Assembly (NCBI GenBank): GCA_022072025.1
Contig: JAJVIP010000007.1
Span: 124,001 to 188,000, forward strand
Direction: 5' to 3'
Length of the DNA stretch: 64,000 nucleotides
Origin: Elusimicrobiota bacterium
GTDB lineage: Bacteria > Elusimicrobiota > Elusimicrobia > F11
In this document: piece by piece, positions 14,984 to 25,652 of the stretch
How positions within the stretch are numbered: the first letter of the stretch is position 1
Layout of the letters: each line of letters begins with the position of its first letter
Translations under genes and position numbers: made by a program
Notes under the pieces: generated by a model
Told to the model about the DNA's origin: nothing
The model's database searches: none
Seen by the model: only the letters and a program-made list of their open reading frames with translations

Positions 14984-17704
14984 TCATTCGAGAACCACCT
15001 CAAAATTCCATTGAGCCTTCCGCGAAACCACATCACGTTTGATCACGACCTCCCGGTCAGATAAGCGAAAATATTCAACCAACTCGCCATCTGAACGAAC
15101 ATCTCTAATTTTCATCTTGTCGAAGGACTTTTTGGTGGGGTTGACATACTCAACCCTGACCTCGGATCCGGCAAATCGAACCGACACCGCTGCGCGTCCC
15201 CGTTTATCAAACTGCTCAGGTGTCAACTTGGGCGCCAACAAAAGATCTCCCTTCAACCCTCTGACCCCAAAGACCTGCGTTAACAACGTCAGAACATACC
15301 AGCTGGCCGATCCCGTCAAATACATGTAGCGACCTCGACCCTCGTTGTTGAAGTATTCAGGAAGTCCAGGAAAAATTCTACTTCTCTGTGAATTTTGAGC
15401 CATCTTAAAAAGAGAACTAAAAACGAAGTGTCCTTCTTTAACGAAATTTCTTTGATAAAGAGCATTCGCGTACATGACGGCCATGTGGCTAAAAACGGCC
15501 CCATTTTCTTTCTCGCCAAAAGCAAATGAAAAAGCGCGCCCCAATTCAGGTTGAATACAACCAAAATCCGTGTTGAGACGAACCCCGCCCAACTTCGAAT
15601 CAAACAAATACTTATCGACCGCTTTCACCACCGATTGAATCCGACCCTGATCCGCGGTACCCGCCATAATTGGATACACCTGCCCTGACAACGTCATTCG
15701 CACTTGGCCTTTGGTATTTTTCCCCTCCACTCTGTTCCCCTTGTTGTCATAGTAACCGTTGTACCAGGCATGACCATTCTCTTCGACCCATTCTTGCTGG
15801 TTGATTTTTTGTCGGATCCAGTCCGCTTTTTCTCTTAAATCACGAGCCAACTCAGAAATAGGCAAGGACGCCTGTTTGCCCGATAATCCCCGCGCGACGG
15901 TTTGAAAATAGTTTTCCAACCTATTCTTCTTCTCATGCGCCCGTTCATAATCCACCCGGTTTTCCAAACGGTCCAACAGAAGTTTTAACTCTTGGGCCAC
16001 CTTGACCTCGGTCCAGGACGCGTTATCAGCCAAAGTTTGGAGCAAGTCCGCCAACGCAGCGAGGTTTCCACCATAAAGATTGGTAAAGGCCACACTTTCA
16101 CCTCGCGCATGCGCCATATCGAGGCCATCGTTCCAGTCGGCATCTTCGAGCCGGATCATGTTGTGTTCGCCAACATTAAAAAACTGGACGAGCGTTTGGA
16201 TCAAAATATGTTCGAGCAAACTGCCCTGCTCTTTGGGTCGAGAGGAATCTATTCGCCAAGACGCGTCCACCCTTTTCCCACGATGGGTCAAAGCATCCCT
16301 GAAATAGGGAACCGTTTCACGCAGAATGTTCCAATCTCCGGTTTGGTTCAAATAAAGAAGGGTGGTTAAAAACGGCCAAACTCCATGATCCATCCAGGTT
16401 CGGGCAATGTTGTTTCGGTCCGCGATAAATTCAGGTTTCCATTTCCCTGCCACTTGTAGTCTTCCAATAATAGTGGCATTGGAGCCGTCCACGCGAACCC
16501 CTCCAAAATTGTGGACGATATCTTCGCGCACTTCTTCCGGGTTTTGCAAAAGAAGCGCCAAACAGTCTTGCCACAAATCTCTCCAGCCTCGTCCGCCGCG
16601 CCCATAATCGAAATCAGGCAGAAATGAGCACCCAAACAATTTCCGTAAGATGGGTTGGCATTGCACCCAACGAATCCAAGAGTTGAATTGAGGATCTCCT
16701 GTCTCAAAACCAATCGTGCCAAGTTTTTCATTCCAATAAGCCTTGGTGTTATCCAACCACTGATATACGGTTTCCGGGATTGGAACAACCGGCAGCTTTT
16801 TGCGGGGATCTTTTTCAATTCCCAACAAAAGAACAAAACTAGTCTTTTCGCCCGCCTTCAGCGTTACGGGTTTAAATTGCAAAGCCCCCATGGCCTCTTT
16901 GCCTTGGTCAGCTTCTGAAATATTTTTGAAAGCCTTTTTATCTTCCACCAAAGCGAGCGGCCGTTCCAAGTCTCCGCTTTCCCCCATAAACGCGGCCTGT
17001 GTTGGAAACAACCCAACGGGCGAGTGACCCCGTCCATCCGCTCCCAAAACGTAATAGGTGGTATTGTTGATTAAATGACCGCGTTCATTGAAGGTCATGG
17101 TGGGACGCAGCGACAAGCCATAGGGTTCTTTATTCAAGCGATGCAAAAGAGACGTGACATGGCGATGATCGCGTAAATTGTCGGCAGACCGCCCAAAAAG
17201 CGGGATCGCGGATGTGGCCGTGAAGGAGAGAGATTTCTTGGAGATATTTTTAACTTCCACCATCATGATTTCAAAGGTGACCTCTTGTGAAGGGACAAAA
17301 TTGAGCACACTGGCCTCAAGACCCCATGTTTTGTTGGTTCGAACCACCCGTTGCCAGAGGGGTCCCGCCTCCATATGGACATGATCTTTCCCCTGGGCGC
17401 GTTGCCACACACTGCGGCCATTGAGAGCCCAATGCGCCTTTTTGGATTTCACGCTTCCTTTTGGATGGAACGACAGCCAAAAATTTCTGGCGGCTCTTGA
17501 CAAATGGAGGTCTTCGTAAGAAACCGGAAGTGTTAAAAAAGAATGTTGATCGATTTTTATATCGCCCCCCAAATCTGGCGAAATGGAGGACATCAAACCT
17601 TGTTCATTGACCAAAGGAAAATAAACCGAACCCTGTTGGCAAGCATCATCAACGCGAAACGAACCCGTAGAATCCAAATAACGATAGAGAGATAATTTCT
17701 TCAA
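14984..17704 (-). CDS. GH94-family glycoside phosphorylase
   Basis: A 906-residue protein of the cellobiose/chitobiose phosphorylase family (old GT36), which splits beta-glucosidic disaccharides with phosphate. Seen: an N-terminal beta-sandwich (FWLSFHPKGS, FEIMMVEVKNISKK), then an (alpha/alpha)6 barrel with GGRGWRDLWQDCLALL, the catalytic-acid segment EDADWNDGLDMAHARGE, GQVYPIMAG and a C-terminal small sheet. Slightly longer than usual (about 800). No signal peptide, so cytoplasmic, fitting phosphorolysis of imported sugars. It follows the GGDEF/EAL gene by 17 nt in one operon. Exact sugar not determinable. Confidence 0.85.
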   Translation of the reverse strand: MKKLSLYRYLDSTGSFRVDDACQQGSVYFPLVNEQGLMSSISPDLGGDIKIDQHSFLTLPVSYEDLHLSRAARNFWLSFHPKGSVKSKKAHWALNGRSVWQRAQGKDHVHMEAGPLWQRVVRTNKTWGLEASVLNFVPSQEVTFEIMMVEVKNISKKSLSFTATSAIPLFGRSADNLRDHRHVTSLLHRLNKEPYGLSLRPTMTFNERGHLINNTTYYVLGADGRGHSPVGLFPTQAAFMGESGDLERPLALVEDKKAFKNISEADQGKEAMGALQFKPVTLKAGEKTSFVLLLGIEKDPRKKLPVVPIPETVYQWLDNTKAYWNEKLGTIGFETGDPQFNSWIRWVQCQPILRKLFGCSFLPDFDYGRGGRGWRDLWQDCLALLLQNPEEVREDIVHNFGGVRVDGSNATIIGRLQVAGKWKPEFIADRNNIARTWMDHGVWPFLTTLLYLNQTGDWNILRETVPYFRDALTHRGKRVDASWRIDSSRPKEQGSLLEHILIQTLVQFFNVGEHNMIRLEDADWNDGLDMAHARGESVAFTNLYGGNLAALADLLQTLADNASWTEVKVAQELKLLLDRLENRVDYERAHEKKNRLENYFQTVARGLSGKQASLPISELARDLREKADWIRQKINQQEWVEENGHAWYNGYYDNKGNRVEGKNTKGQVRMTLSGQVYPIMAGTADQGRIQSVVKAVDKYLFDSKLGGVRLNTDFGCIQPELGRAFSFAFGEKENGAVFSHMAVMYANALYQRNFVKEGHFVFSSLFKMAQNSQRSRIFPGLPEYFNNEGRGRYMYLTGSASWYVLTLLTQVFGVRGLKGDLLLAPKLTPEQFDKRGRAAVSVRFAGSEVRVEYVNPTKKSFDKMKIRDVRSDGELVEYFRLSDREVVIKRDVVSRKAQWNFEVVLE

Positions 17705-17721: not shown

Positions 17722-19497
17722 TTAACGCTTGATTTTTTCAGGATTGGCGGGAATTTGCGAAGGCCGCGCAAACAAGAAACCTTGACCGAGACGAATTCCG
17801 GATTTCAAAGCCAAATAACTGTCTGATCTGGACTCCAGTTTGGTGCAAATCACTTCCGCTCCCGTTTGCCGAATAGCACCGATCAAATTCGAAAAACTGT
17901 TTTGTTTTTGATGATCATTGAGCATCCCTTTAAAAGTCACCATATTCAGTTTGATGTAGTGGGGTTTCAGTTCTGTCAAAAACCGATACCCCTGGTCTAA
18001 AGCGGCAGTGGCCGCATCAATACACACCTTGAAACCTCGGTCTTTGTAAGGAGCCAATTCGGCAAACAACTCCAATGGATCGTTCGAACGGTGAGCCCCC
18101 GTGAGCTCCAATATGATTTCTTGTGGGAGGGAGCTCAAGGAGTCAAAAATATCTTGATTGCTTTTTTCACGATCAAGAAAAGTTTCAGGGAAAATATTGA
18201 TAAAAATTTTAAGTCCACGATTGAGCTGCGAGGAGGCTTCAAGAATTTTTTTCATACACAAGCGGTCCAAACTGAGAACCTGATTGGAAGTTCGTGCTGT
18301 TTGGAAAAGCGCATCGGGATACTCAAGAGGCGTGTTTGCGGGCCCTCGCACCAACGCCTCCACTCCAACCACATCATCTGTTTTCATGTCGAGGATGGGT
18401 TGAAATAAAACCGAGATGGTTCCGGTTTTAATGATTTCAGTGAGTTGCCCTGGCAAAAAACCGCTAATGGCGCTGGTGATTTGTTCAAGGACCTTGGGGG
18501 ACCCCGCCGCAGATCCGGGACCCCATGTAAATTCCGCCAAAGGAGCGTTCGCGGTCCGGCGATCTCTGACGTAAGCGCTTCCATGAAATGATTTCGCGTA
18601 TTTTTTCAATTGGGTCAGAGAATGATTGATCTGTCCCAAATTAGAAAACTTCCCGCCCTCATCTGAAGCCAATCCAATGGACATGGACACGAGTGGGATT
18701 TGAGAGACCACTCCCCGCCGATCCTCAACCACCACATATCCATTCTTGCGGTCTTCTTCGCTGTAAAAATTTTTAGCTCCTTTATCGAATTCATCCGTCA
18801 TTTTTTGGCATATCTCCGAGGCATTCTCATAGGCACATATGAAAACAAAATCGTCTCCTCCCACGTGACCAATGAAATTTAAATTCGGAGATAACTTTTC
18901 AACCACATTCACGATGGTTTTCGCTGTATAACGAAGAACCTCATCTCCATTTGAAAACCCATATTTGTCATTGAAGGCTTTAAAATTATTGAGGTCCACA
19001 TAACCCACAGCATAGGGTTTTCCTGAACCGATCCGCATTTGGAGAGATTTCACAATCGCCGTATTTCCAGGCAACCGCGTGAGTGGGTTCGCATCCAAAT
19101 GAGCCTGCGCCCGTTCTTTAACAAGTTGGGTTCGAAGTAATAAATCATTGACATCAATGGGCTTGACTAAATATTCATCCATGATGATATCGAGGCTTCG
19201 CATCTTGTCCAAAAAATCAATGCGGTTGGAAAGGACAATCAAAGGAACATCGCGAAACATCAGATTGCGCTTGAGTTCACGGGCGATATGAAACCCGTCC
19301 AAGTCGGGCAAGTTGATATCGAGGATCACTACATCTGGAGGAGATTTAAAAATAGCCGTGAAAGCTTGTTCAGAAGAAGAGGAGGTGGTTAAGGTATACC
19401 CCGCCTGAGTAAGCGCCTGGGTAACAATCTCTACAAGTTCTGGATCATCCTCGATTAAATGGACGGACCCCAAATTCTTGGCAGGTATGTTGGCCAT
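17722..19497 (-). CDS. Response regulator with GGDEF and degenerate EAL domain
   Basis: A 591-residue three-domain regulator. REC (about 10-130) has the acidic pair IEDD and the phospho-acceptor D60 (VVILDINLPDLDG). GGDEF (about 140-310) has GGDDF, compatible with diguanylate cyclase activity. The EAL-type domain (about 345-590) keeps VEALVRGP but has LELTG where active enzymes have the metal-binding ExTE, and lacks the DDFGTG loop (CIDAATAALDQGY instead), so it probably binds rather than cuts c-di-GMP. It heads a six-gene operon with GH94, cNMP-binding and PerM-like proteins. TATAAT stands 6 nt before the ATG: probably a leaderless mRNA. Confidence 0.9.
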   Translation of the reverse strand: MANIPAKNLGSVHLIEDDPELVEIVTQALTQAGYTLTTSSSSEQAFTAIFKSPPDVVILDINLPDLDGFHIARELKRNLMFRDVPLIVLSNRIDFLDKMRSLDIIMDEYLVKPIDVNDLLLRTQLVKERAQAHLDANPLTRLPGNTAIVKSLQMRIGSGKPYAVGYVDLNNFKAFNDKYGFSNGDEVLRYTAKTIVNVVEKLSPNLNFIGHVGGDDFVFICAYENASEICQKMTDEFDKGAKNFYSEEDRKNGYVVVEDRRGVVSQIPLVSMSIGLASDEGGKFSNLGQINHSLTQLKKYAKSFHGSAYVRDRRTANAPLAEFTWGPGSAAGSPKVLEQITSAISGFLPGQLTEIIKTGTISVLFQPILDMKTDDVVGVEALVRGPANTPLEYPDALFQTARTSNQVLSLDRLCMKKILEASSQLNRGLKIFINIFPETFLDREKSNQDIFDSLSSLPQEIILELTGAHRSNDPLELFAELAPYKDRGFKVCIDAATAALDQGYRFLTELKPHYIKLNMVTFKGMLNDHQKQNSFSNLIGAIRQTGAEVICTKLESRSDSYLALKSGIRLGQGFLFARPSQIPANPEKIKR

Positions 19498-19503
19498 TAA
19501 TCC

Positions 19504-19511
19504 ATTATACT
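19504..19511. promoter_or_regulatory. Overlapping divergent -10 elements
   Basis: TATAAT on the minus strand (19509-19504) and TATACT on the plus strand (19506-19511) share four bases in the 21-nt gap between two divergent start codons. Each lies 6-7 nt before its ATG. No clear -35 on either side. Confidence 0.6.
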
Positions 19512-19518
19512 TTGCTTT

Positions 19519-22500
19519 ATGCGAATCCTATCCAGGGGGATTTTCCCCCTCCTTCTGATTTGTTGGGCCATGAAGGGTTCCGCCCAAGATCCCAATGAGA
19601 TATTAAATTCCACAATGGAGGGAGATAACGGCTCTCCCGCCGAACAAGTGGCGCCCAAAATTAAAACCCAGCTTGAGGCACTGCGAATGGACGCTCAAGA
19701 TTTCAGATTGTCTCCGGGCTGGCCTCTGCCCTATACCATCGCCTCAATTGAAACTTTTTTCAACACGCCCCTCGACATCCCCGTTTCGGCCGGCCACTGG
19801 GCTGATCATGTTGAAAATGCCACCCAGCTTTTAGATTACCTCACAACCGCCGCCAATATTTTGAACCTCTCTTTACCAACCACCGCTCTCAACCCGCTGA
19901 AAAGTATAAACAAAACGATTCCAATCGAACTCCATAAACCGGTGGGAATTCTGCTTGGAAGCCTCCAACAAGCGCAACCCTATCTCAACCGCGCGGTTGA
20001 TTCATTGTCTAAAGAAGCGCGCCAAGGATTGCTCGACCTCAACAGTTGGCCCGACGTCCACACCGGAGCCATCAAGCAAGAAATATCCTCCCGTCGAATA
20101 AAAGCCAATTACGACAACCTCTCAACATTTTCGGAATCTGATTTATATACCGCAGGTGCGGTTCTTTTTAAAGCGTTGGATGCCGCATTGCCTGAGATCA
20201 CGTCTTCTGTCTCTCTCAGGAAAAATATCCGCTGGAGAACCCCTCAAGGCACAGTCCTCATCAGCGGCGGTGGCGATGATATCTATGAGAGAAAGGATCT
20301 CGAGGGAGTCAGTTTGTTGATTGATTTGGGAGGGAAAAACACCTACCGCACCCCGGTGGCCAGGGCCTACGAAAAAGAGATTCGCATGGTCATCGATTTG
20401 GGAACCGATGTGAGGGTTGAAGGAGAAAATGACTTCCACGGCAATGCGGGCAGTGGCGTGTTTGGAATTGGCATTTTAATTCTGCCGAACGCAGCAGGGC
20501 TTAAATCCATCAACACAGACAACTTCAGCCAAGGTTTCGGCATGGCTGGAATTGGCGTTCTCCTCGTCCATGGGAAAGCCCATTTGAGCGCGCAACGATC
20601 CACTCAAGGCATGGGTATTTTTGGTTTGGGCCTTTTGATTGCCAAAGAGGCCCATGGCTCATCCTATGTGGCCACAAGAAGCGGTCAAGGTTCCGCTCTC
20701 ACGCGCGGCGTGGGAGTGTTTCTTCATGAGGGAAACGAAGGCGATATCAAAGGCGGCCTTGTGCAGCCCGATCCGCGCGAACCCTTGGGATCGGTGAGCC
20801 TCTGTCAAGGAGTCGGCTTTGGGCCTCGGGCTTATGCCGGAGGGGGAGTGGGCATCGCCGTCATAAAAGGAAACAACAACACCGTCAAAGGCAGCTACTT
20901 CTCTCAAGGGGTGGGATATTGGCATGGGTTCGGAGTGTACCGGTTGCATGGAAACCACAACATCACTCAAGCCCGACGGTACGACATGGGTTCCGGTGTT
21001 CACAGCGCCTTTGGACATATGGACGTATTTGGTGATCACAACCGCATTCTCAACTGGGGTGTGGGGCCCGCCTATGGATGGGACAAAGCCATCGGGTCTT
21101 CTTTAATAATAGGAGATCACAACGAAATGCAGACCGAATGGGGAGCGGGAACCGCCTCCATTGGGAGCTTGTCGTTTTCGCTGATCCAAGGCCAATACAA
21201 CAAGCTTAAACTCTGTGACTTTGGAACAAATAATTTCTTTCGAGACGAGCCAGCCTATTCCGTTCAAGTTATCGAAGGTCTCAACAACCAATTGCAATGT
21301 CAAGGCGTGGCCCCGACAAATGGAGAACGATTGAGACGCTTGCGTTCCCCCTGGGGCCTTTTTCAAATAAACCAAACTGAACTGGTCGACAATCTGGAAC
21401 TGATGGCCCCTGTATGGCCTGAACTTCCGCGTGAAGAGGGAATCGAACGAGAGAGCGTGGACCTTCAAGCGCATATGGAACAAGCGAGGGAAAAACCCGC
21501 GCTTGATGAAGTCGGTGACTTGCTTGACGTCGCCGCCGCTTTTAGTCTCGACAAAGTGACACCTCGGAAAGCGTTGTTGGAGATATTGAAACTCCCTCCT
21601 GAAAAAGCGACCTTGTTGGTGGACATTGTGGAACCCGCCGCGTTGGATCAACTCATTCAACTGAGCATTGCCATCCCGGCCCATGGAACCGTAAGCGCTG
21701 ATAAACTTCTCGCAACATTAACGAACGAACAATCACCACAGAAGAAAGCCACCCTCATCAACTTTCTGAGGCTCCACCGACCCAGCCTGGTGGTTCCGGC
21801 TCTCCTTGAGATCATGAAAACAGAACTGAAGGAAGAATTTAAAGTCCAACTTCTCCGCACCTTAAGCGCGCTTCTCAACAAAGACAGCGGCAATGAACCC
21901 GGACCCCGTGCTGCGTGGCTCCAGTTGGAGCCCTATTTAAAAAACCCGAACAAAGACCGCCGCGAAAGGGTTCACCGCCTTCTTCAACGAATCCGCTTTG
22001 GAGAATGCTTTGGTTTATTGGCGAGCACGCTTGATTTATCTCCAGAGGAACGGGAGGAGTTTTTCGAGAGCGCCCCCCCCGACCTTACAGGCAATTCAGG
22101 ACCTGAAAGCGCCACAGCCTTTCTAAAAATATTAAATGGACGGAAAAAGGAGAGCTTGGCGGGAGTCACAGATCAACTCAAAACTCTTGCGAAATTGGAA
22201 CCCCTGGTTCGCTCTAATCTCACGGAACTCTTGCAAAGCACAAAGACGGCCAGTATCAACAACTCCCTCATCGGATTGGGGCATATTGGGAACGCGGAAG
22301 ACGCTCAACATGTGGCCCCCTTTTTGCAACATACCGACACCCGCGTTCGCGAATCAGCCACCATCGCTTTGGGCCGACTGGGACAGGCAGGAATCCCTTT
22401 TTTGCTTCAAGCGCTGACCAGTGATTCATTTCGAGACCGCTCATTGGCACTCGTGGCCATTACTCAGGCCACCCACCCAAAAACACTTTCATTACTGAAT

Positions 22501-22671
22501 AAAGGATGGGGAGATTCGAACCCTCTGGTGCGTTTGACCGCGCTGACCGTTCTCGACAATCTTTCCGAATCGCTCCGAACACACCGCCCCAAACTTGTTA
22601 AACGCGCGAAAAAAATCTTAGCCAACGATTCTGACCCCGACGTCCGTCTCGCCCTTCAGCTGCTCAAGTGA
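19519..22671 (+). CDS. Exported glycine-repeat and HEAT-repeat protein
   Basis: A 1050-residue protein of unknown function. Signal peptide (LSRGIFPLLLICWAMKGSAQ); a helical N-terminal part to about 240; then a repetitive block (about 245-595) that begins GGGDDIYERK and repeats units like QGFGMAGIGVLLVHG, QGMGIFGLGLLIAK and QGVGYWHGFGVYRLHG, probably a beta-solenoid; then HEAT repeats (about 655-1050; GHIGNAEDAQHVAPFL, RVRESATIALGRLGQAG). Likely periplasmic or on the outer surface, as a scaffold or binding protein (inference). TATACT stands 7 nt before the ATG and no Shine-Dalgarno is present. uup follows after 13 nt. Confidence 0.75.
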   Translation: MRILSRGIFPLLLICWAMKGSAQDPNEILNSTMEGDNGSPAEQVAPKIKTQLEALRMDAQDFRLSPGWPLPYTIASIETFFNTPLDIPVSAGHWADHVENATQLLDYLTTAANILNLSLPTTALNPLKSINKTIPIELHKPVGILLGSLQQAQPYLNRAVDSLSKEARQGLLDLNSWPDVHTGAIKQEISSRRIKANYDNLSTFSESDLYTAGAVLFKALDAALPEITSSVSLRKNIRWRTPQGTVLISGGGDDIYERKDLEGVSLLIDLGGKNTYRTPVARAYEKEIRMVIDLGTDVRVEGENDFHGNAGSGVFGIGILILPNAAGLKSINTDNFSQGFGMAGIGVLLVHGKAHLSAQRSTQGMGIFGLGLLIAKEAHGSSYVATRSGQGSALTRGVGVFLHEGNEGDIKGGLVQPDPREPLGSVSLCQGVGFGPRAYAGGGVGIAVIKGNNNTVKGSYFSQGVGYWHGFGVYRLHGNHNITQARRYDMGSGVHSAFGHMDVFGDHNRILNWGVGPAYGWDKAIGSSLIIGDHNEMQTEWGAGTASIGSLSFSLIQGQYNKLKLCDFGTNNFFRDEPAYSVQVIEGLNNQLQCQGVAPTNGERLRRLRSPWGLFQINQTELVDNLELMAPVWPELPREEGIERESVDLQAHMEQAREKPALDEVGDLLDVAAAFSLDKVTPRKALLEILKLPPEKATLLVDIVEPAALDQLIQLSIAIPAHGTVSADKLLATLTNEQSPQKKATLINFLRLHRPSLVVPALLEIMKTELKEEFKVQLLRTLSALLNKDSGNEPGPRAAWLQLEPYLKNPNKDRRERVHRLLQRIRFGECFGLLASTLDLSPEEREEFFESAPPDLTGNSGPESATAFLKILNGRKKESLAGVTDQLKTLAKLEPLVRSNLTELLQSTKTASINNSLIGLGHIGNAEDAQHVAPFLQHTDTRVRESATIALGRLGQAGIPFLLQALTSDSFRDRSLALVAITQATHPKTLSLLNKGWGDSNPLVRLTALTVLDNLSESLRTHRPKLVKRAKKILANDSDPDVRLALQLLK

Positions 22672-22684
22672 TTCAACTTCATTC

Positions 22685-24460
22685 ATGTCCATCCTCCTGA
22701 GCTGCCGCAACCTCTCCAAGAGTTTCAGCACACGTCCGCTTTTTGAAGGGCTCTCATTGGGTCTGTTTGAAGGCGAACGAACAGGCCTCATTGGACCCAA
22801 TGGCGCAGGCAAGTCGACCTTGTTGAAGATATTGGCCGGACTAGAAACACCGGACAGTGGAGAATTGTCAATACGCCGCGGCCTCAAAGTCCGTTATTTG
22901 GCGCAACAAGACATCTTCTCCAAAGTCGCCCAAGGAACCACCGTTCGCGAGGAACTCACACAGGCTTTACAAGGATTGAATCTGGAAGACTGGGAAGTCG
23001 ACATGCGCGTGGATGTGGGCATGACCGACGCGGGGTTTGACGGCAATCAAAAAGTCGACAGCCTTTCTGGGGGGTGGCGCAAACGATTGGCGATTCTGGC
23101 GCAAGTTCTCTGTGAACCAGACCTGTTGTTATTGGATGAGCCAACCAATCATTTGGATCTTGAGGGTGTGCTATGGCTGGAGAACTTTTTGTCGGCCCTC
23201 GACTTTTCCTTTCTTGTGATCACCCACGACCGCCGTTTTCTGGAATCCGTTTGTAACCGAGTGATTGAACTCAACAAGCACTATGAAAATGGCCATTTCA
23301 GCAGCGTTGGGAACTACAGCCAATTTATTGAAAACCGTGAGGCCCTCTTCAGCGCGCAGGCGGCGCAAGAAGAATCAGTCCGCAACACGGTTCGGCGTGA
23401 AATTGAATGGCTGCGCCGCGGCCCCAAAGCCCGCACCACCAAACAGAAAGCCCGCATTGACCGGGCAGGGGAGTTGATCGAGGAATTGGCGGAACTCAGT
23501 TTCCGCAATGCTCAAGACCGTTCAGCCAACATCGATTTTTCCGGCAGCAACCGCCAATCCAAAAGTTTAATTAACGCCCATCAAATCACAAAAAGCATGG
23601 GGGGCCGAAAACTCTTTGGCCCCTTGGACCTGCCGCTGGGCCCAGGGGATAAACTGGGTTTGTTGGGTGGCAACGGAAGCGGAAAAAGCACGTTGTTAAA
23701 AATATTGGCGGGTCAACTCTCTGCGGATTCGGGCACCATCAAACGAGCTGAAGGGCTAAAGGTGGTCACTTTTGACCAACACCGCGAACAACTGGACCTT
23801 TCTCTCACGTTGCGAAAAGCGCTCTGTGAAAATGGAGAGAAGGTTCATTACAAAGACAGCTTTATTCATGTCGTGGGTTGGGCCGAGCGGTTTCTTTTTT
23901 CCAAAGGACAATTGGATTTGCCTTTGAGTCGTCTCTCCGGTGGCGAGCAATCACGCGTTATGATTGCTCGCCTGATGCTGCGCCCCGCTGATTTGTTGCT
24001 TTTGGATGAACCCACCAATGACTTGGACATCAACTCCCTGGAGGTGCTGGAGGCGAGCATGGTGGATTTCCCTGGCGCCTTGGTTCTCGTAACGCACGAT
24101 CGGTACCTGTTGGACCGCGTGAGCGATCAGATCCTCTATTTGGATGGAAAAGGCCATGCGCGATATTTCGCCGACTTGGATCAATGGGAAAGCCGGTTGA
24201 CCGAAGAGGCGGAAATTGAAACTCCAACCAAAAAGAAAAAACTTGTGTCTGAAAAAAACTCCAAGGAATTAAAACAATTGGAAACAAGCCTTGAGAAAGC
24301 GGAACAAGAACGGGATCAGGCCCGTGCTGCTTTGGCCGACCCTGCCGTTGCTTCAAATGCCACCGAACTGTTCAAACGCCAAGAAGCGCTGGATAGCGCT
24401 CAAAAAAATGTCGACGCTCTGTTCAAACGCTGGGAAGAGCAAATCAAGAATAGTTCATAG
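22685..24460 (+). CDS. uup: ABC-F ATPase, Uup-like
   Basis: A 591-residue soluble protein with two ABC ATPase domains: Walker A GPNGAGKST and GGNGSGKST, signatures LSGGWRKR and LSGGEQSR, Walker B LLLLDEPTNHLDL and LLLLDEPTNDLDI. The linker (about 230-290, basic, RRGPKARTTKQKARI) and a C-terminal coiled coil (about 520-590, KELKQLETSLEKAEQERDQA) are typical of Uup, which acts on ribosomes or branched DNA. It lies 13 nt after the HEAT protein, probably co-transcribed, and its last 17 bases overlap the convergent MFS gene. Confidence 0.88.
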   Translation: MSILLSCRNLSKSFSTRPLFEGLSLGLFEGERTGLIGPNGAGKSTLLKILAGLETPDSGELSIRRGLKVRYLAQQDIFSKVAQGTTVREELTQALQGLNLEDWEVDMRVDVGMTDAGFDGNQKVDSLSGGWRKRLAILAQVLCEPDLLLLDEPTNHLDLEGVLWLENFLSALDFSFLVITHDRRFLESVCNRVIELNKHYENGHFSSVGNYSQFIENREALFSAQAAQEESVRNTVRREIEWLRRGPKARTTKQKARIDRAGELIEELAELSFRNAQDRSANIDFSGSNRQSKSLINAHQITKSMGGRKLFGPLDLPLGPGDKLGLLGGNGSGKSTLLKILAGQLSADSGTIKRAEGLKVVTFDQHREQLDLSLTLRKALCENGEKVHYKDSFIHVVGWAERFLFSKGQLDLPLSRLSGGEQSRVMIARLMLRPADLLLLDEPTNDLDINSLEVLEASMVDFPGALVLVTHDRYLLDRVSDQILYLDGKGHARYFADLDQWESRLTEEAEIETPTKKKKLVSEKNSKELKQLETSLEKAEQERDQARAALADPAVASNATELFKRQEALDSAQKNVDALFKRWEEQIKNSS

Positions 24461-25652
24461 ACGCCCCTCGAGGATGGGCGCGCATGAGGATTGAAAGAGC
24501 GAGGCTCGCCAAAAATACGAGGGAAGCGCCAGACCAAAATGCCAAACGGGGCCCACCCACGGTCCACAAATATCCAAACAATAAACCTGCGGGGAGCGCG
24601 CACAAACCAACCGTCAAATTGTGAATGCCAAAAGCGGTGGCACGGGATTCATCTGCGACCAAACCCGCGATTAAAGCCCGCTCCGCGCTTTCGGTCAGCG
24701 CGGGATAGAGTCCGTAGAATAGAAAGACCACCAAAACAATCGCCGGGTGAGTAAAAAATCCCAACAAAAGGTAAACGCCCCCCAACACCATCCATCCCAT
24801 CAAGATGGCATGGCGGTATCCGATTCTATCCGCCAGTTTTCCGCCAGGCATCGAACAAAGAGATTTGATCACATGAAGAAGCGCCCACGAGACAGGAATC
24901 CACTTGGGAGCCAAACCGATCGATTGTAGTTTCAACAACAGAAACACATCATTCGCGCTTCCCAACGTGAAGACCATGAGAATCATCAAATATCGCTTGA
25001 ACATGAGAGGCAATGCCGCCGCCAACCGTGGAGTTACAAGGGGCCCTTTGGGTCGAGGCGGTTCATTACTGGCGCGTTTGGCAAGAACGATAAAGTAGAC
25101 CGCACATATCCCCGGGATGACTGAAATGAGGAATAGGGATCTATAATTCCCTGGGTAAAACCACAAAAATAAAGTCGCCAAAAGGGGCCCCACCACCGCT
25201 CCAGCATGATCCATCGCGCGATGGAATCCGAATATGGTTCCACGGCGATGATGATCCACCAAACCTGACAACCAAGCGTCCCGAGGGGCTGTGCGCATTC
25301 CCTTTCCAATCCGGTCGATAAACCTCAATACAAGCACATGCCATGGAAATAGCGCCAAACCAATCAGCGGTCGAAAAAGATTCGCAATGCTATACCCCAT
25401 CACGACAAAGCGAGTCCGTTTCTTGAGGCGGTCAGATAACCACCCAAAATAAAACTTGGCGACCGAGGCAGTTGAATCGGCCACACCCTCGACCAATCCA
25501 ATAAACGCCGCGGAGGCGCCCAGCTGTTGCGCCAAAAAAAGCGGCAGCAAGGGGTAAATCATCTCGCTGGCCGCGTCGGTGAAAAAACTGACCACCCCAA
25601 GAAAGAAGGCGGATTTTGGAATTCCAAAACGGGACAAGCGGTTGGTCAACAT
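24444..25652 (-). CDS. Major facilitator superfamily transporter
   Basis: A 402-residue, 12-helix MFS protein. Seen: FLGVVSFFTDAASEMIYPLL in helix 1, the loop 2-3 motif GWLSDRLKKRTR, the RTAPRDAWLSGL loop after helix 4 and the pseudo-repeat GGKLADRIGYRHAI in the second half. The fold is clear, the substrate is not. The ATG at 25652 is chosen because TATAAT lies 6 nt upstream and the first helix starts just after; the frame is open to 25874 but that part has no membrane helix. Leaderless by appearance. The 231 bp up to the beta-CASP gene hold nothing else recognised. Confidence 0.85.
   Translation of the reverse strand: MLTNRLSRFGIPKSAFFLGVVSFFTDAASEMIYPLLPLFLAQQLGASAAFIGLVEGVADSTASVAKFYFGWLSDRLKKRTRFVVMGYSIANLFRPLIGLALFPWHVLVLRFIDRIGKGMRTAPRDAWLSGLVDHHRRGTIFGFHRAMDHAGAVVGPLLATLFLWFYPGNYRSLFLISVIPGICAVYFIVLAKRASNEPPRPKGPLVTPRLAAALPLMFKRYLMILMVFTLGSANDVFLLLKLQSIGLAPKWIPVSWALLHVIKSLCSMPGGKLADRIGYRHAILMGWMVLGGVYLLLGFFTHPAIVLVVFLFYGLYPALTESAERALIAGLVADESRATAFGIHNLTVGLCALPAGLLFGYLWTVGGPRLAFWSGASLVFLASLALSILMRAHPRGASMNYS

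What the first reader, a model, noticed from the sequence alone, without database searches (positions are those of the whole stretch)
19495..19521. Divergent overlapping -10s between two start codons 21 nt apart
The c-di-GMP regulator and the glycine/HEAT protein are divergent with only 21 nt between start codons. ATTATACT carries a -10 for both strands, overlapping by four bases, each 6-7 nt from its ATG. RNA polymerase could bind in only one direction at a time, so the two genes would compete. Such symmetrical bidirectional promoters are known, but combined with two leaderless starts the arrangement is extremely compact.
Basis: partly seen in the sequence, partly recalled or inferred. Interest (0 to 1): 0.6.

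Follow-up and report, generated by a model that had tools for sequence, protein, structure and literature searches.

The report
Shared two-way promoter between leaderless genes
Two bacterial genes that point away from each other appear to share one tiny promoter with no room for ordinary ribosome-binding leaders, a compact layout that seems to turn up at several unrelated gene pairs in this little-studied bacterial group but has not been tested in the laboratory.

Summary
In an Elusimicrobiota genome a REC-GGDEF-EAL gene (ATG 19497, minus) and a signal-peptide/HEAT gene (ATG 19519, plus) are 21 nt apart; ATTATACT gives TATAAT 6 nt before one ATG and TATACT 7 nt before the other. The plus gene has no Shine-Dalgarno pairing, the minus gene only weak pairing, and neither has a good -35. 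Leaderless geometry is enriched here: TANNNT sits 6-7 nt upstream in 21 of 235 sampled no-SD, unit-first genes (6.7 expected), and in 36 of 108 in a related family (7.05 expected). The pair itself is not conserved: no other HEAT-homologue locus carries the REC-GGDEF-EAL gene, and no close relative is held. The layout recurs with other genes: a second 21-nt module in the same genome, and a coaD/HD-domain pair in family f10 where the palindromic -10 persists while coaD is leaderless-like or SD-led. Best reading: a bidirectional promoter, a known kind, in a doubly leaderless form. Competition between the genes is not shown; published E. coli work finds tested bidirectional promoters too weak for it at basal level. 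All evidence is sequence-only; no transcript ends were available.

The parts
19504..19509 (-). -10-like hexamer TATAAT for the REC-GGDEF-EAL gene, 6 nt before its ATG
19506..19511 (+). -10-like hexamer TATACT for the HEAT gene, 7 nt before its ATG (alternative register TACTTT 19508-19513)
19498..19518 (.). 21-nt spacer between the two start codons; ANTATANT core 19504-19511
17722..19497 (-). REC-GGDEF-EAL protein gene, 591 aa, ATG start, weak SD pairing (-2.4 kcal/mol; median of 591 genes -3.1)
19519..22671 (+). Signal-peptide protein with HEAT repeats, 1050 aa, ATG start, no SD pairing (+2.2; only 1.4% of 591 genes as weak)
14984..17704 (-). GH94-family gene, probable second gene of the minus unit (17 nt after the REC-GGDEF-EAL stop), with SD pairing (-8.8)
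22685..24460 (+). ABC-F-type ATPase gene, probable second gene of the plus unit (13 nt after the HEAT gene stop)

Best explanation
The 21-nt spacer is a minimal bidirectional promoter. Housekeeping sigma factor and RNA polymerase recognise the near-palindromic -10 ATTATACT in either orientation; each orientation starts a transcript at or within about a base of the A of the ATG, so both first genes are translated as leaderless or nearly leaderless mRNAs, each followed by one downstream gene. Shown here: sequence geometry, lack of SD on the plus side and only weak pairing on the minus side, lack of a good -35, genome- and class-level enrichment of -10 hexamers at leaderless distance, recurrence of the layout. 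Inferred: that the promoter is active in both directions, the exact start sites, translation of the leaderless mRNAs, and mutual exclusion of the two polymerases.
For: Geometry. Leaderless class: TANNNT 6-7 nt before ATG in 21 of 235 unit-first no-SD genes vs 6.7 expected (P 8e-6) and 13 of 89 divergent no-SD genes vs 2.55 (P 3e-6), two of each being the window pair; 36 of 108 vs 7.05 in family f10. No SD pairing at the plus start, while Elusimicrobia have the ordinary anti-SD (PMC10783764, table passage). A second exact 21-nt module in the same genome between two divergent long ORFs, TATAAT on both strands. In 235 class genomes the pattern CATN6ATTATANTN7ATG gives 29 sites vs 7 for the reversed control; 6 of 29 have ORFs of at least 100 aa starting at both ATGs vs 2 of 218 CAT-21-ATG sites without it (Fisher 3.8e-5; 2.4e-4 without the window site). 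coaD/HD pair: 24 of the 25 loci with a divergent HD gene (30 loci examined) have TATAAT/TATCAT 6 or 8 nt before the HD start, and 6 of 25 are leaderless-like on both sides.
Against: No transcript data. No good -35 on either strand (best at 16-18 nt spacing 2 of 6 on each side). The pair is absent elsewhere. The perfect-palindrome pattern is not clearly enriched: 11 sites vs 8 in the reversed control. One of three relaxed-pattern sites in the own genome lies inside a PhoH-like gene. Among other family-f1 genomes the leaderless peak is only 4 of 46 vs 1.4 (P 0.054). The ORF enrichment partly reflects that AT-rich sequence and divergent starts both sit between genes. Minus-gene SD pairing is weak but near the genome median.
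Confidence: 0.62

Rival explanations
1. Only one direction uses this -10 (most likely the minus one, with perfect TATAAT); the HEAT gene is transcribed from a promoter inside the REC-GGDEF-EAL gene and has a long leader.
For: The minus hexamer is the better one. A 10-of-12 plus-strand promoter-like site, TTGACA-16-AATATT, lies at 19148-19175, about 340 nt upstream.
Against: A long leader would still lack an SD at the HEAT start. One search found 7 such sites against 4.8 expected by shuffling, so that site is no evidence by itself.
Confidence: 0.23
2. Neither hexamer is used; the match is a chance feature of an AT-rich spacer, and both genes have promoters inside each other's coding sequence.
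For: Hexamers as good as these arise in 0.46% of shuffles of the same 21 bases, and many spacers exist in a genome; the pair is not conserved.
Against: Leaderless geometry is enriched in the own-genome sample and most of all in divergent genes; the layout recurs between divergent genes.
Confidence: 0.1
3. One or both start codons are misplaced, and the genes are SD-led from internal starts.
For: The plus ORF has a second in-frame ATG at 19570.
Against: Starting there removes the signal peptide, and the REC domain begins only 11 residues after the minus ATG, much as in orthologues.
Confidence: 0.05

Closest known systems
Bacterial bidirectional promoters with a shared symmetric -10 (Warman/Grainger; PMC12825309, PMC10268837 read in part; the 2021 paper PMC7612053 is not held)
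   Same: Overlapping -10s on opposite strands; predicted start sites 22 bp apart, inside the 7-25 bp definition and near the reported 23-bp class.
   Different: Not the commonest 18-bp register, and both start codons fall at the predicted start sites, so there is no leader on either side.
TA-led leaderless bacterial genes, -10 about 12 bp before the start codon (Zheng et al. 2011, PMC3160421, passages; Deinococcus-Thermus, PMC12340547, passages)
   Same: TANNNT whose first T is 12 (minus) and 13 (plus) nt before the start codon; no SD on the plus side.
   Different: Two such genes share one -10. 'divergent' has 0 hits in both papers; 'bidirectional' was searched only in PMC12340547, 0 hits.

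Membership tests
Bidirectional promoter | -10 elements on both strands that overlap | tested here: met
   ATTATA / TATACT share TATA
Bidirectional promoter | Divergent start sites 7-25 bp apart (definition in PMC10268837) | not testable with these tools
   Predicted 22 bp if both start at the A of ATG; no 5'-end data
Bidirectional promoter | Most common 18-bp register (-7 and -11 coincide, TANNNTA) | tested here: not met
   Register is ANTATANT; the 18-bp register is the commonest arrangement, not a required one
Bidirectional promoter | RNA made in both directions | not testable with these tools
   No RNA data
TA-led leaderless gene | TANNNT about 12 bp upstream of the start codon | tested here: met
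   Both strands
TA-led leaderless gene | No Shine-Dalgarno pairing | tested here: inconclusive
   Plus gene: none (+2.2). Minus gene: weak, -2.4, near the median -3.1
TA-led leaderless gene | mRNA begins at or next to the start codon | not testable with these tools
   No 5'-end data
Conserved regulatory pair | Same divergent pair and spacer in relatives | tested here: not met
   No other HEAT-homologue locus has the REC-GGDEF-EAL gene; nearest relatives held are other genera

The most novel reading that the evidence does not exclude
Elusimicrobiota use a recurrent class of 20-24-bp double-leaderless bidirectional promoters in which one palindromic -10 is the entire regulatory region of two operons; the shared -10 is kept by selection while one side can change between leaderless and SD-led translation by growth or shrinkage of its leader, as the coaD/HD series suggests.
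Probability: 0.4. Interest if true: 0.6.

Novelty: new variant of a known kind. Interest (0 to 1): 0.42.

Why it matters
It joins two known phenomena, bidirectional promoters and leaderless genes, in the smallest possible space. The coaD/HD series gives natural variants of one such promoter in related genomes, so how leaderless and SD-led starts interconvert, and whether opposed polymerases interfere, could be measured directly. It also suggests that leaderless genes are common in Elusimicrobiota, for which the searches of the held library listed no such report.

Tried and rejected
Operator idea: the inverted repeat AGGGGGATTTTCCCCCT (19534-19550) is the only exact copy in the genome; two other sites match with one mismatch, against one site for the reversed control, so it was dropped as a shared operator. 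DNA search for the spacer region in 60 relatives: none matched but the window itself. A genome-contig scan with the single HEAT protein found nothing. -35 search: mean best match 3.0 of 6 in 21 leaderless-type genes vs 2.5 in shuffles, little signal. Own-genome one-mismatch sites at C7:72125, C27:180790 and C3:100831 were checked by ORF length: the last two are not divergent pairs (17 and 3 aa; 12 and 9 aa), the first (112 and 290 aa) is undecided. C10:110905 was not checked. For a moment I took the C17:82264 site for a response-regulator/PP-loop pair; that pair is L172 from another genome, and C17 lies inside a PhoH-like gene (named by eye).

Limits of the counts: ORFs came from a simple caller of my own (at least 300 nt, first ATG), not from an annotation; the SD filter is a word list; the own-genome sample is 784 kb of 3.64 Mb including the window. 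In the coaD test only the 30 best loci of 78 matches in 77 of 90 genomes were examined; 25 had a divergent HD gene, 1 a same-strand one, 4 none. L188, counted among the 6 two-sided sites, has no Pfam match on either side.

Full report
What is there. The window lies in contig 7 of a 3.64-Mb genome in 43 contigs. At 19495-19521 two start codons face away from each other with 21 nt between them. The minus gene codes for a REC-GGDEF-EAL protein, the plus gene for a protein with a signal-peptide-like N-terminus and C-terminal HEAT repeats. Each is followed closely by one gene on its strand: a GH94-family gene, and an ABC-F-type ATPase.

The promoter signals. TATAAT on the minus strand and TATACT on the plus strand overlap by four bases and end 6 and 7 nt before their ATGs. 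Neither has a -35 at 16-18 nt with more than 2 of 6 matches; the best outside that range is TGGATA, 4 of 6, at 19 nt on the minus strand. SD pairing is absent for the plus gene and weak for the minus gene. Hexamers this good on both strands occur in 0.46% of shuffles of the spacer and in 6 of 19,127 intergenic 21-mers.

Are leaderless genes real in this organism? In 784 kb of own sequence I called 631 ORFs and 64 divergent pairs. SD-like words peak 5-10 nt before starts, but among 235 unit-first ATG genes without SD words, TANNNT at 6-7 nt occurs 21 times against 6.7 expected from positions 10-49 (P 8e-6); among 89 divergent ones 13 times against 2.55 (P 3e-6). The window pair supplies two of each; without it 19 and 11 remain. 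In family f10 the peak is far stronger: 36 of 108 against 7.05, 31 of them at exactly 6 nt. Other families: f14 4 of 23 vs 0.55; f3, f4 and f12 together 5 of 41 vs 0.9; other members of the window's family 4 of 46 vs 1.4, not significant.

Is the pair conserved? No. HEAT-protein matches were found in 22 of 60 genomes searched, the window's own included, some of them to the HEAT repeats alone, and at 29 loci of genome contigs. Apart from the window's own loci, no locus that holds a HEAT-protein homologue carries the full REC-GGDEF-EAL gene; L116 has a REC-only match downstream. Some of these loci end soon after the match, so for them a missing neighbour says little. In G002 the REC-GGDEF-EAL gene keeps its GH94 neighbour but faces a superoxide-dismutase-like gene 181 nt away (named by eye). 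In G001 the HEAT gene overlaps an upstream gene on the same strand, and in G003 it follows one by about 55 nt. So the head-to-head arrangement is particular to this lineage as far as the held genomes show; no other genome of its genus appeared, so close-range conservation cannot be tested.

Does the layout recur? In the own genome the relaxed pattern CATN{6,7}ANTATANTN{6,7}ATG has three sites and none in the reversed control: the window; C11:88195, between a 790-aa glycosyltransferase/PMT-type ORF and a 475-aa membrane-type ORF with weak TPR similarity, with TATAAT on both strands and the same 21-nt gap; and C17:82264, inside a PhoH-like gene and so a chance match. Across 235 class genomes the stricter pattern has 29 sites in 27 genomes against 7 control sites. 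Six of 29 start ORFs of at least 100 aa on both sides, against 2 of 218 comparable CAT-21-ATG sites without it; Pfam supports L172, L173 and L181 on both sides, L191 with one side weak, and L188 on neither. Against this, the perfect palindrome pattern gives 11 sites against 8 control sites, although 5 of those 11 have ORFs on both sides. Because AT-rich sequence and divergent starts both lie between genes, these enrichments do not by themselves prove a selected module.

A conserved example. Two of the sites belong to the same gene pair, a coaD-like gene and an HD-domain gene. In family f10, 30 loci were examined; 25 have the HD gene divergent. In 24 of 25 a TATAAT or TATCAT lies before the HD start (22 at 6 nt, 2 at 8 nt; L242 has none). 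In 6 of 25 the coaD side is leaderless-like too, with gaps of 20-24 nt; in the others coaD has a longer leader, mostly with an SD-like word by eye, beside a similar palindromic -10. This is the best sign that such an element is kept, and that one side can change its mode of translation start. It is a different gene pair from the window's.

Mechanism. The simplest account is one near-symmetric -10 read by RNA polymerase in either orientation, giving two leaderless or nearly leaderless mRNAs with start sites about 22 bp apart. Bidirectional promoters have been defined by divergent start sites 7-25 bp apart (PMC10268837, passages), with 18, 10 and 23 bp most common (PMC12825309, introduction). 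Opposed polymerases cannot bind at once, but that paper reports basal activity too low for competition at the five promoters tested, with interference when one direction is activated. Competition between the window's two genes is therefore possible but not expected by default.

Novelty. Both ingredients are known. Searches of the held library for leaderless with Elusimicrobia, Elusimicrobium with transcription start site, Elusimicrobiota with leaderless, and leaderless with bidirectional promoter listed no paper that by title or abstract describes this combination; only PMC10783764 of those was opened (passages). That is a limited search of open papers, so I call it a new variant of a known kind.

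Noticed in passing
window 24444-25652 (-): A transporter-like gene (by eye) whose ATG at 25652 also has TATAAT exactly 6 nt upstream and no SD word: a third leaderless candidate in the window.
   Followed up: partly
window 19534-19550: Inverted repeat AGGGGGATTTTCCCCCT, 16-32 nt into the HEAT coding sequence; could form a hairpin near the 5' end of a leaderless mRNA. Unique in the genome at 0 mismatches.
   Followed up: partly
window 17722-19497 (-): The GGDEF motif reads GGDDF, and the EAL domain seems to lack the usual DDFGTG stretch (motifs recalled), so the protein may sense rather than make or break c-di-GMP.
   Followed up: no
window 19519-22671 (+): The central glycine-rich region of the HEAT protein, with repeated QG/GxG motifs, holds most of its invariant columns in Elusimicrobiota and has no Pfam match; weaker relatives appear in Caldisericia and others.
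   Followed up: no
L058:13173-16090: Another divergent pair 23 nt apart in the own genome, the plus gene MurC-like by eye; TAAGTT 7 nt before the plus ATG, TAAAAT 4 nt before the minus ATG.
   Followed up: partly
L220-L249: coaD/HD divergent pair of family f10 with a conserved palindromic -10 and a coaD side that is either leaderless-like or SD-led.
   Followed up: partly
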